Assembly: GCA_938021675.1 (NCBI GenBank)
Contig: CALIFY010000039.1
Span: 1 to 64,000 of the forward strand
Direction of reading: 5' to 3'
Length of the DNA: 64,000 bases
Origin: an uncultured Acidimicrobiales bacterium
GTDB taxonomy: Bacteria > Actinomycetota > Acidimicrobiia > Acidimicrobiales > SZUA-35
The stretch's first letter is position 1. Each line of letters starts with the position of its first letter. The position numbers and the translations under genes were made by a program. This document shows positions 52,190 to 58,842 of this stretch, piece by piece. The notes under the pieces are model-generated. The model was not told where the DNA came from. It did no database searches and was given only the letters and a program-made list of their open reading frames with translations.

Positions 52190-53449
52190 TCAGGTCGACA
52201 CGTGGCGTACGAAGTAGATGTCGGCAATCCGATCGATGAGCTGGTTATCGAGCCGATTGGCAAGCTGGTCGTAGTCGCACACGCTGGTCGCCAACTCGCA
52301 AAAGTCGACGGCCACATACGGCCGGAGCTCTCCAAGATAGTCCAGAGTGATCTTGCCGAGATAGGCGGCGGCTTCGGCGGTGACGTCAAGGCCCTCCCTG
52401 TCGGCGGCTCGCACCAGGATCCAGTTGAACGCCGATTCGCTACAAGCGCCGACGAATACCTTGTTTCGCAGCCTACGAAGGAACGCATCGTCGCCAAGCT
52501 CATGGGGATCGAGGTTGGTTGAAATGACCAGTTTGAGTTCGAACGGAACGGTGAACTTCACCCCGCTGTTCGGTCGCAGAAAGTCGATACCTCGTGAGAG
52601 CGGTACGATCCACCGGTTGAGAATCTGGTCTGGTGTCATCGACTGTCGACCAAAGTCGTCGACGACGAGGATCCCGTTGTTGGCCAGGAGCTGGATCGGC
52701 GCTGCGCTCACCCCTGAGACCGTGTCGTACTGGAGGTCCATCATCGGCATCTCGAGTTCACCACCGACGAGGATCAAGGGTCGTTTACATACGATGAATC
52801 GAGGGTCGAGTTCGCTTGGTTGGTCCTCAACGGCCTCGTGGAGCGAGGGGTCGAACACCGAAATGAGCTGGCTGTCGACCTCGAGATACCTCGGGACAAG
52901 TATCTCGTCGCTGTAGAACCGGCTCATCCGCTCAGCCAAGCTCGTCTTCCCGGTTCCGGGGGGACCATAAAAGAAGATTGCCCCCTCGCTCAAGAACGCG
53001 GGACCGATTTGGTCCAGAATCCCATCCTCCAAAACGAGATCGCCATATGCCTGCTTCGTCGACTCCCGATCGAGCACAACGCTCGACCGTTGACTCAGTA
53101 CAAGCGACTGATAGTCGGCGAGCGGTACCGGCATCTGCGCCACGTGGCTGCCGGCTCGCATCCGCTCGGCCGTGACCGAATGGCCGAGTTCGGTGAGGGC
53201 AATGCGGTAATCGCGTCCCTCCACTCCGTGGTACTCGACGAGATTCTTCTCCCGCAATGACTCGGCGAGTTCATCACCGATGGCGTGGGAGACGCAGAGC
53301 GCATCGGCGGCCCTGCTCACCGTCGTCATTCGCTCGGTGAGGATGCGACGCATAAACAAATCTTCGGCGAGGCCTGGGGCGATTCCGAGTTGCTCGACCT
53401 TTCCGGGCGGCAGCATCGACATCGCCAGGTTGGTTCCAGACGTGGTCAT
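52190..53449 (-). CDS. AAA+ ATPase of unknown role
   Basis: A 419-residue protein. An N-terminal winged-helix region covers about 20-100 (MRRILTERMTTVSRAADALC, then VEYHGVEGRDYRIALTELG). The AAA core has Walker A YGPPGTGKTSL (about 161-170), Walker B ILVVDDFGRQSMTPDQ and a sensor in LVISTNLDPHEL. Similar stand-alone ATPases occur in actinobacteria and Chloroflexi, often near pilus or secretion genes, but none are seen here. The ATG at 53449 is two codons inside a GTG alternative. Convergent with nothing; prsW lies 60 nt upstream in the same direction. Confidence 0.8.
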   Translation of the reverse strand: MTTSGTNLAMSMLPPGKVEQLGIAPGLAEDLFMRRILTERMTTVSRAADALCVSHAIGDELAESLREKNLVEYHGVEGRDYRIALTELGHSVTAERMRAGSHVAQMPVPLADYQSLVLSQRSSVVLDRESTKQAYGDLVLEDGILDQIGPAFLSEGAIFFYGPPGTGKTSLAERMSRFYSDEILVPRYLEVDSQLISVFDPSLHEAVEDQPSELDPRFIVCKRPLILVGGELEMPMMDLQYDTVSGVSAAPIQLLANNGILVVDDFGRQSMTPDQILNRWIVPLSRGIDFLRPNSGVKFTVPFELKLVISTNLDPHELGDDAFLRRLRNKVFVGACSESAFNWILVRAADREGLDVTAEAAAYLGKITLDYLGELRPYVAVDFCELATSVCDYDQLANRLDNQLIDRIADIYFVRHVST

Positions 53450-53509
53450 GTTCACTGTTATCGGCGCGAAACAGGCCGAGCATTACGAGTTGCTGCTGTG
53501 GATTTCGCC

Positions 53510-55145: not shown

Positions 55146-56186
55146 GTGTCGCCGCCAAATCGCCTCACCTGTCTTTTTGTTTTCCTTGCCGTAGCCGTCG
55201 TCGCCTGTGGCGGGGACTCCAACGCTACGCCCTCGTCGACGACCGACGGCGAGATCGCCGCCGATGGTTCGTCGACGACACCCGTGGCGAGTACTTCCGG
55301 CCGGTCGAGGAGTACCGCGTCGACCGGAGCGGCACCGACGACGTCTGACGTATCGATATCGGTCCGACAGTCGACGTCGACAGCGGCAGAGAGGCGATCG
55401 GACGCCGGCCAAGGCACTGTGCCGGCCGAGACGACGTCAGTTGAGATCGATACCACCCCGGCCGAAACTGCATCCGTCGCGGTGGACACGACAACGGCCG
55501 ACACGACACCGGTTCAGATGGACACCACGCCGGCCGATACCACGCCAATCGACAGCCCGGAAAACGATACGGCCGAAAACGCTGCGTCGACCGGCGCCGT
55601 CGCTGCCGCGGTGCCCGATCTCGTTGGCGAAACGTCGACCCATCCCCTCATCCCGCAGTCTTGGGCGCCGTTCGCAAGTTTCTCTGGGGTCATCTTGATC
55701 CAACCGTCGATCAACATCGAGCGCATCGGGTTTCATGAGTCGGACCACGACGGTGCCCAACAGCTCGACATTGCCGCCAACACTGTCTTCCCAATCGTTC
55801 TCGAAAGCCGGGGCAGGGGCACCGGTTCGCGAACGGCGGCAGACGTTGTCGTCAAACCAGATACTGAAATCCGCGCCCCGGTAACCGGCACGGTCATCCG
55901 GGCCGGAGGTTACGTGCTGGACTGTGACCATCGAGACGGTTTCGTCGTCATCGAACCCGATGCTCACCCTGGATGGGAAGTCAACGTCGTCCATATCACC
56001 GGCGTGCAGGTCTCACCTGGTGACAGGGTGGAGGCCGGCGTCACGGTGCTTGCCCCTGGCGCCACCGACTTACCGTTCGACTCCCAGATCGATAGCCACA
56101 CCGCTGAGCCGTCGTGGCCCCACGTCCAGATTGAGCTACTCGATCCAGCGATCCCCGCTCGGCTATCACCCGGTGACGCCTGTTAA
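55146..56186 (+). CDS. Lipoprotein with Thr-rich repeats and a degenerate M23 peptidase-like domain
   Basis: A 346-residue exported lipoprotein: signal peptide with lipobox VVACGG, then about 140 residues of Thr/Ser/Ala-rich disordered linker containing short DTTPA-type repeats, then a beta-rich C-terminal domain (about 165-340). That domain resembles LytM/M23 peptidases (APVTGTVIRAGG, then VVHITGVQVSPGDRVEAGV), but the HxH zinc motif reads PHVQIEL, with the second His replaced by Gln. It is therefore probably not an active endopeptidase; degenerate LytM proteins can activate amidases (inference). GTG start without clear ribosome-binding site. Confidence 0.78.
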   Translation: MSPPNRLTCLFVFLAVAVVACGGDSNATPSSTTDGEIAADGSSTTPVASTSGRSRSTASTGAAPTTSDVSISVRQSTSTAAERRSDAGQGTVPAETTSVEIDTTPAETASVAVDTTTADTTPVQMDTTPADTTPIDSPENDTAENAASTGAVAAAVPDLVGETSTHPLIPQSWAPFASFSGVILIQPSINIERIGFHESDHDGAQQLDIAANTVFPIVLESRGRGTGSRTAADVVVKPDTEIRAPVTGTVIRAGGYVLDCDHRDGFVVIEPDAHPGWEVNVVHITGVQVSPGDRVEAGVTVLAPGATDLPFDSQIDSHTAEPSWPHVQIELLDPAIPARLSPGDAC

Positions 56187-57122: not shown

Positions 57123-57590
57123 TCATTGACCGGTAAGGAAGACCCGACGGTCAGCCTCGACCGCGGTGACTACACAATCGGATACCGATCGACCGGCGGT
57201 AGGAAGCGAAAGTTCACGCTCCTCACCTGAGCCGAGGACGGGCGCCTCTGCGACAAGCGCCAGGTCGTCTCCATCATCGACGGTCATCGACACAGCGATA
57301 ACGAAGTCGTCGTCGTCCGAACCTTCGTTTCGAATGGTGACTGCATACCCCTCGGCTCCCACTGTTCCACAGGCAACCGACACCGACGATTGGCTATCAC
57401 CAAGTACGATCCGCTCGCTGCCACTCGGTGTGTTTGGTGACGCCGGGGCCAGCTCTTCTTGGGCTATTTCGTCCTCTTCTGAACCATCGGTGCTTCGAAT
57501 ATTCAGCACGGCCAGAATTCCGAGGATGATGACGAGAAGCACAGAGGAAAGCACCGCTACCGGGCGCAGGATAGAACCGGCGGATTTCAT
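57123..57590 (-). CDS. Single-TM extracytoplasmic protein of unknown function
   Basis: A 155-residue protein with one N-terminal hydrophobic segment (VAVLSSVLLVIILGILAVLN, about 12-31), acting as signal anchor, then an acidic linker and a C-terminal beta-sandwich-like region with two Cys (SVACGT and SDCVVT) that may pair. No family recognised. It is divergent from the TIR-like membrane protein gene, with 136 bp between starts. Confidence 0.65.
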   Translation of the reverse strand: MKSAGSILRPVAVLSSVLLVIILGILAVLNIRSTDGSEEDEIAQEELAPASPNTPSGSERIVLGDSQSSVSVACGTVGAEGYAVTIRNEGSDDDDFVIAVSMTVDDGDDLALVAEAPVLGSGEERELSLPTAGRSVSDCVVTAVEADRRVFLTGQ

Positions 57591-57713
57591 CGGACCAGTA
57601 TGACCGATTCACCAGGCTCGGCCAGATCGCGGGCAAAGGGCCTGACCTTCGCTTCTCTTGGCATATGCTCCTCATTCTGTGCCGGTGGCTCTCGCGCATC
57701 ATAGTGAATTGAC

Positions 57714-57719
57714 TAGGGT
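57714..57719 (+). promoter_or_regulatory. Predicted -10 element of the TIR-like gene (leaderless start)
   Basis: TAGGGT ends 7 nt before the GTG at 57727; no Shine-Dalgarno sequence is present. Confidence 0.5.
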
Positions 57720-57726
57720 GTAGCTT

Positions 57727-58842
57727 GTGGATTCCGCTTCGACTAGCAGTAAGGCGCCGCGCGTATTGATCGGACGCGGCGGGGCCGACCGGCCGTTCCG
57801 ATTATTGGCCGATGGCCTGCGTCGCGAGGGATACCAGGTCGACGAGCTCGCGTCGTCTCCCGTCGGCGCCCACAGCACGGGCACGGCAACCCAGGACGTG
57901 CTCGGAAAAATCGACATGGCCTTCTTGATCGTGCGCGAAAGCGACGCAAAGGACAACGGTGGACCGGTGCGACCGTTCCAGCGGGTGGTACGGGAGGCCG
58001 GAGTCATCCAAGGCCAACTAGGAATGGATCGCGTCGTCCTATTGGTCGAGGAAACGGTCGAAGGCCTCTCAGCCGATACGGGGATCGCAACGATCCGTTT
58101 TCCTGCCGGAATGCCAGAGGCCGTCCTGAACGACGTATTGTCCTCGATCCGCTTCGCGTTTCCGCCACGGGTTCGCGACCTTCGTGCCCAGCCGCCGATC
58201 ATGGAACAGGCTCGAAGTGACGCCCTGAAGTTGCCGTGGCTTCTCGTCGCCGCAGTGTGCCTCCTGGCGTTCATCCCGTTCGTTCTGGCGATCCGAGCGA
58301 TGGGCGCCGATTCGGCCGATGATCCCGATCTAAGTATCCAGCAACTAGATGGCCTGGCCGGTGCGCTCACAGCTGGGGCACAATCCAACGGATTGGATTC
58401 GGCCGTACCGGGAGACGGCGAGGCACTGGCGCCGCAAGCACCATCGCTTCCCTTTGGTGGCGACGACGCGCTGCTCCCAGTCACCTGCCGGCTCGATTTG
58501 TCTTCCGGTCGTCTCTCCGACGAAACGATTGAGTGCGACGGAGCCGGTGGCTTGGCCATCGAGGGTTTCTCCGGGCCGTGGCACACCGAGATCGGCCAAG
58601 TGGCGGTCAGCCCAGGGGTCGTCGGTGAGCTGGTGTACGAGCCGCGCTCGGATGGTTTGACACCGGGGACTAACACCGTTGAGCTACTGCCGGGCACCGT
58701 GACATTGGATCAATCCGACGCCACTTTCGGAGTCGACAACGTGGTGCTCCAATTCAGTGCCCAAGATCAACACATCCATCTGCTACAGGCTGATAGCCGT
58801 GGAGGCGAAGCGGTAACCCTGATCTTCAGCCTCGGGCTATAG
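57727..58842 (+). CDS. Membrane protein with TIR-like N-terminal domain
   Basis: A 371-residue protein. Residues 11-145 resemble the TIR-like predicted nucleotide-binding domain (PF10137 group): strand PRVLIGR, helix DGLRREGYQVDEL, strand KIDMAFLIVRESD, the helix with a conserved Glu in QRVVREAGVIQGQLGM (Glu90), then strand DRVVLLVEE. In true TIRs and this group the Glu sits where NAD is cleaved. A single membrane helix follows (about 170-192), then a 180-residue region likely outside the cell, acidic and beta-rich. GTG start. No clear CBASS or Pycsar neighbours. The family match is by pattern only and needs a profile search. Confidence 0.6.
   Translation: MDSASTSSKAPRVLIGRGGADRPFRLLADGLRREGYQVDELASSPVGAHSTGTATQDVLGKIDMAFLIVRESDAKDNGGPVRPFQRVVREAGVIQGQLGMDRVVLLVEETVEGLSADTGIATIRFPAGMPEAVLNDVLSSIRFAFPPRVRDLRAQPPIMEQARSDALKLPWLLVAAVCLLAFIPFVLAIRAMGADSADDPDLSIQQLDGLAGALTAGAQSNGLDSAVPGDGEALAPQAPSLPFGGDDALLPVTCRLDLSSGRLSDETIECDGAGGLAIEGFSGPWHTEIGQVAVSPGVVGELVYEPRSDGLTPGTNTVELLPGTVTLDQSDATFGVDNVVLQFSAQDQHIHLLQADSRGGEAVTLIFSLGL

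What the first reader, a model, noticed from the sequence alone, without database searches (positions are those of the whole stretch)
57727..58842. Membrane-anchored TIR-like protein with an external domain
The N-terminal 135 residues follow the pattern of nucleotide-binding TIR-like domains with a Glu at the NADase position (Glu90), then one membrane helix and a 180-residue beta-rich outer part. An outside-sensing, inside-NAD-cleaving effector would be a possible defence or signalling protein. It is divergent from another single-TM exported protein (57123-57590), which could be its partner.
Basis: partly seen in the sequence, partly recalled or inferred. Interest (0 to 1): 0.6.

Follow-up and report, generated by a model that had tools for sequence, protein, structure and literature searches.

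The report
Membrane receptor-like protein with degenerate TIR
This is a single-pass membrane protein, found in one family of uncultured actinobacteria, that joins an inside TIR-fold domain (the fold of immune-signalling enzymes) to a previously unclassified outside domain. It comes with a conserved divergently transcribed partner gene, and because most of its NAD-cleaving pocket is missing it looks more like a signalling or assembly protein than an NAD-destroying defence weapon.

Summary
The gene at 57727-58842 encodes an N-terminal CAP12/PycTIR-type TIR fold (Pfam PF10137 above its cut-off; Foldseek to TIR-STING, E 1e-6), one membrane helix (169-189, N-in/C-out) and an outer beta domain with two invariant cysteines. 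The suspected partner link also holds: a single-TM, two-cysteine exported protein lies divergently upstream in 13 of 15 genomes of the family that carry the TIR gene (one exception untestable, one true absence).

The NADase/defence reading is not supported. Of nine NAD-pocket residues described in SfSTING the protein keeps only the glutamate (E90), whereas PycTIR keeps eight. Across 15 relatives the glutamate position is E(4), D(2), A(5), L(2), Q, T. In a subclade with alanine there, the TIR domain is still under strong purifying selection (dN/dS about 0.03). The gene is a vertically inherited, syntenic chromosomal gene with no CD-NTase or cyclase next to it and no phage relatives.

Best reading: a lineage-restricted, receptor-like membrane protein whose TIR domain works by binding or assembly rather than NAD cleavage, paired with a second envelope protein. 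The outer domain (AF2 pLDDT 90) has no significant structural match. New variant of a known kind; moderate interest.

The parts
57727..58842 (+). Gene for the 371-aa single-pass membrane protein (TIR-like inside, beta domain outside)
57760..58161 (+). TIR-like domain, residues 12-145 (CAP12/PycTIR type)
   Evidence: PF10137 26.3 bits; profile to PycTIR; Foldseek to TIR-STING
57994..57996 (+). Codon of Glu90, aligned with SfSTING E84; not conserved in the family
58231..58293 (+). Membrane helix, residues 169-189, N-in/C-out by charge bias
   Evidence: AF2 helix 158-193
58309..58461 (+). Disordered, fast-changing linker, residues 195-245
   Evidence: low pLDDT; 20-73% identity and many gaps
58462..58839 (+). 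Outer all-beta domain, residues 246-371, with invariant Cys254, Cys270 and a GPWH motif (283-286; GPWHN in most relatives)
   Evidence: no significant structural match
57123..57590 (-). Divergent partner: 155-aa single-TM exported protein, outer part with Cys74 and Cys139
57591..57726 (.). 136-bp divergent intergenic region between the two start codons

Best explanation
A receptor-like single-pass membrane protein specific to one Acidimicrobiales family. The outer disulfide-type beta domain (with the divergently encoded single-TM partner) meets a cue or ligand at the cell envelope. The helix and the conserved juxtamembrane segment pass this to the cytoplasmic TIR-fold domain, which acts by TIR-TIR assembly or by binding a nucleotide or protein, not by NAD+ cleavage. 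Shown by computation: TIR fold, predicted topology, conserved pair, loss of the NAD pocket, purifying selection without the Glu. Inferred: that the outer domain is the sensor, that the two proteins act together, and that the output is assembly or binding.
For: TIR fold. Topology N-in/C-out and outer Cys pairs in both proteins. NAD pocket lost (1/9 in the window protein, at most 3/9 in relatives; PycTIR 8/9): with pocket residues taken from PMC9402430. Glu position variable; the Ala form arose once inside the genus and persists in five species. TIR domain 94% identical with dN/dS about 0.03 in the Ala-type trio, more conserved than the outer domain (81-87%). Partner profile strong hits (E<1e-34) lie beside the TIR gene in 13 of 15 TIR-bearing genomes, including two (G006, G010) not used in the profile; Fisher p 1.7e-7, not corrected for relatedness. 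The same outer domain occurs on a second single-TM protein without a TIR domain in this genome.
Against: No experiment. No ligand, no interaction data. E90 is present here and in three relatives, probably ancestral within the genus, so some members could be enzymes. Outside the genus the family is thinly sampled (4 genomes). The paired genes may be linked only by shared regulation or synteny.
Confidence: 0.5

Rival explanations
1. One reading: an outside-sensing effector whose TIR domain cleaves NAD+ (E90 catalytic) to cause signalling, dormancy or abortive infection.
For: PF10137 includes NAD+-cleaving effectors; E90 aligns with catalytic E84 of SfSTING; E kept in four family members on two branches of the genus.
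Against: Eight of nine pocket residues are changed, including the S10, R78, N80, W33 and D110 equivalents. Glu is replaced by A/D/L/Q/T in 11 of 15, with selection maintained in the Ala-type subclade. Syntenic chromosomal gene throughout the genus, no CD-NTase or cyclase neighbour; only weak PADLOC hits.
Confidence: 0.17
2. Inside-out structural role: the TIR-fold domain is a cytoplasmic assembly or nucleotide-binding module that positions an envelope-binding outer domain (for example a polysaccharide or peptidoglycan binder), together with the partner and perhaps the nearby M23-like lipoprotein; no signal is sensed.
For: The outer domain is an all-beta domain with weak similarity to carbohydrate-binding modules (best CBM86, E 0.03, not significant); the TIR-less paralogue shows the outer domain is a module of its own; an M23-like gene lies close to the pair in four genomes.
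Against: The structural hits are not significant; no binding site is known; the M23 gene is not found at the locus in most relatives.
Confidence: 0.23

Closest known systems
Cap12 / bacterial TIR-STING (CBASS effector), TIR domain, PF10137
   Same: Same TIR fold and Pfam family; best Foldseek match (9lmq, E 1e-6); catalytic-Glu position occupied by Glu90 here
   Different: No STING domain, no CD-NTase nearby, membrane-anchored with an outer domain, eight of nine NAD-pocket residues changed
PycTIR (Pycsar effector)
   Same: Best profile match in the PDB (8jsj, E 1.2e-4) over the whole TIR domain
   Different: PycTIR keeps 8 of 9 pocket residues and is part of a cyclase operon; here 1 of 9 and no cyclase nearby
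Toll-like receptors (works-like comparison only, from general knowledge)
   Same: Layout: outer domain, one helix, inner TIR domain acting by assembly rather than catalysis
   Different: Reverse orientation of the chain (TIR at the N-terminus), no leucine-rich repeats, no shared ancestry claimed
Short CAP12-like nucleotide-binding protein of Hymenobacter plasmid NZ_CP060788
   Same: 31.7% identity over residues 10-150
   Different: Match covers the TIR-like domain only

Membership tests
PF10137 CAP12/PycTIR TIR domain | Profile score above the curated cut-off | tested here: met
   26.3 bits against 24.7; 5 of 15 relatives match at E<=1, most too diverged
PF10137 as NADase | Catalytic glutamate on helix C | tested here: met
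   E90 in the window protein, but only 4 of 15 family members have Glu
PF10137 as NADase | NAD+ pocket residues of SfSTING (F6 S10 W33 F37 L47 R78 N80 D110 beside E84) | tested here: not met
   1 of 9 (the Glu alone) kept; PycTIR control 8 of 9
PF10137 as NADase | NAD+ hydrolysis | not testable with these tools
   needs a biochemical assay
CBASS Cap12 (TIR-STING) | C-terminal STING domain and neighbouring CD-NTase | tested here: not met
   Pfam finds only the TIR domain; neighbours are PrsW, M23-like, methyltransferase, rhodanese; NCBIfam Cap12 15.6 bits against cut-off 450
Pycsar PycTIR | Neighbouring pyrimidine cyclase | tested here: not met
   no cyclase among the neighbours scanned by Pfam, NCBIfam or PADLOC
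Mobile anti-phage defence gene | Patchy distribution, variable location, mobile elements | tested here: not met
   11 of 12 same-genus genomes, conserved neighbours; absent from phages and viral contigs
Conserved divergent gene pair | Partner found beside the TIR gene in relatives and not elsewhere | tested here: met
   13 of 15 TIR-bearing genomes; among 24 TIR-negative genomes only G002, where the contig ends

The most novel reading that the evidence does not exclude
A bacterial receptor system, two paired single-pass envelope proteins, in which a TIR domain that has shed its NADase chemistry relays an outside cue by assembly, analogous in logic to animal Toll-like receptors but of independent origin, with an outer domain of a fold not yet described.
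Probability: 0.2. Interest if true: 0.75.

Novelty: new variant of a known kind. Interest (0 to 1): 0.42.

Why it matters
Well-studied bacterial TIR domains such as Cap12 and PycTIR are NAD+-cleaving defence effectors. A vertically inherited, membrane-anchored TIR family that kept the fold under strong selection while losing the NAD pocket, with a dedicated partner, would be a case of non-catalytic TIR signalling in bacteria and would make that question directly testable. The outer domain is also a candidate new beta fold.

Tried and rejected
Single-protein PDB search gave only a chance GldM hit. Outer-domain profile in the PDB: nothing. Foldseek of the outer domain in PDB and viral libraries: nothing significant. 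A Thaumarchaeota contig hit to the GPWH motif (L066) was read and judged a chance pattern match. Matches to the membrane segment alone in other Actinomycetota were treated as chance. The AAA ATPase and PrsW neighbours were considered as functional partners and rejected: they occur in 34/39 and 35/39 family genomes, with or without the TIR gene. Literature searches for membrane-anchored or non-catalytic bacterial TIR proteins returned no direct precedent, but the library is partial.

Full report
OBSERVATION. The ORF 57727..58842 (+) encodes 371 residues from a GTG start. Residues 12-125 match Pfam PF10137, the TIR domain of CAP12 and Pycsar effectors, at 26.3 bits (cut-off 24.7). The own genome has no other match to this family. 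A profile of the domain from 15 family members finds PycTIR (8jsj, E 1.2e-4) and, weakly, Cap12. An AlphaFold2 model from the family alignment (mean pLDDT 75) matches TIR-STING (E 1e-6), PdTIR and SARM1 in the PDB. So the TIR fold is real. One membrane helix lies at 169-189 with more positive charge on the N-terminal side in 14 of 15 members (equal in the other) and no second helix, giving TIR inside and the C-terminal part outside. The outer domain is 246-371, after a disordered linker.

DISTRIBUTION. The gene is in 11 of 12 genomes of the genus and in 4 of 27 other genomes of the family. The outer domain was found in no genome outside this family among the 298 sampled in the order. Named relatives are Acidimicrobiales/Acidimicrobiia metagenome-assembled genomes. 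In the genus the locus is syntenic: AAA ATPase and PrsW on one side, rhodanese on the other in most members (in G001 PrsW lies about 31 kb away). No relatives in phages or viral contigs; one plasmid hit, to a short CAP12-like protein of Hymenobacter.

NOT A CONSERVED NADASE. Glu90 aligns with the catalytic Glu of PycTIR and with E84 of SfSTING. Across 15 family members this column is E 4, D 2, A 5, L 2, Q 1, T 1. The SfSTING pocket is described as F6, W33, F37, L47, S10, R78, N80, E84 and D110 of the dimer mate (PMC9402430). Aligned to these, PycTIR keeps 8 of 9, the window protein 1 (E90), and no family member more than 3 (the alignment in the loops is approximate). In a tree the Ala form arose once within the genus and is held by five species; Glu was probably ancestral in the genus (the root is uncertain). 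In three close Ala-type species the TIR domain is 94% identical with dN/dS about 0.03, and more conserved than the outer domain (81-87%), while the linker drifts (63-73%). The domain is therefore kept for something other than Glu-dependent NAD cleavage, at least in that clade.

OUTER DOMAIN. Every fully invariant residue of the family is in this domain: P251, C254, C270, G274, G280, G283, P284, W285, E305, F343. Two invariant cysteines outside the membrane suggest a disulfide (inference). AF2 gives a confident all-beta fold (pLDDT 90, pTM 0.84). Foldseek finds nothing at E<=0.001 in the PDB (best CBM86, E 0.03) or in viral models. The same domain sits on a second single-TM protein without a TIR domain in this genome, split between contigs C16 and C64 that overlap by 141 bp, so it is a module in its own right.

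PARTNER. The divergent gene 57123-57590 encodes a short N-terminus, one TM and an outer part with two cysteines, Cys74 (10 of 11 aligned homologues) and Cys139 (all 11). Homologues lie divergently upstream of the TIR gene in eleven loci, 24-564 bp away. A profile search of 39 family genomes gives strong hits (E<1e-34) in 14; 13 of these are beside the TIR gene, including two genomes not used in the profile, and the fourteenth (G002) lies at a contig end where the TIR gene cannot be seen. G023 is untestable (contig end) and G025 lacks it. Fisher p is 1.7e-7, or 0.017 outside the genus; neither is corrected for shared ancestry. No Pfam family fits it. The AAA and PrsW neighbours are present across the family regardless of the TIR gene, so the partner is the specific link.

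MECHANISM. Best reading: an envelope-facing receptor-like protein with its partner, relaying through a TIR domain that acts by assembly or binding. Shown: fold, topology prediction, pairing, pocket loss, selection. Inferred: sensing, joint action, output. The NADase/defence reading remains possible for this one protein because E90 is present, but it has little support.

LIMITS. All evidence is from sequence and predicted structure. Relatives are mostly metagenome assemblies. The literature check was limited to an open-access library, and no library of predicted cellular structures was available.

Noticed in passing
L077:5886-9042 (G426, an actinomycete genome, same phylum): Two tandem PfkB-type sugar kinases, each fused to a CAP12-like TIR domain; one keeps the catalytic-type Glu (HEIGLFQG), the other has Gln in the same context (HQVGIFQG). 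Possible enzyme/pseudo-enzyme TIR pair.
   Followed up: partly
L041:9686-10317 and L040:1-304 (own genome, contigs C16 end / C64 start): Second single-TM protein with the same outer domain but no TIR domain, split by a contig break with a 141-bp exact overlap.
   Followed up: partly
L030 and L031, upstream of the TIR gene; also L039: A DoxX-like small membrane protein ORF sits between the two divergent genes in two relatives, and in place of the partner in a third.
   Followed up: no
window 55146-56186: M23-peptidase-like lipoprotein (sub-threshold PF01551), conserved near the pair in three relatives.
   Followed up: partly
window 52190-53455: AAA ATPase of unclear family, highly conserved (about 55-74%) in 34 of 39 family genomes; several genomes have two copies.
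   Followed up: partly
L041:3112-5775 (own genome, contig C16, minus strand): Large protein that by eye looks like TPR repeats plus a CHAT-type protease domain (AAHGHF...LAGCDLG).
   Followed up: no
L100 (G001:C115:5318-5641): A separate PF10137 protein (33 bits) in a same-genus genome, away from this locus.
   Followed up: no
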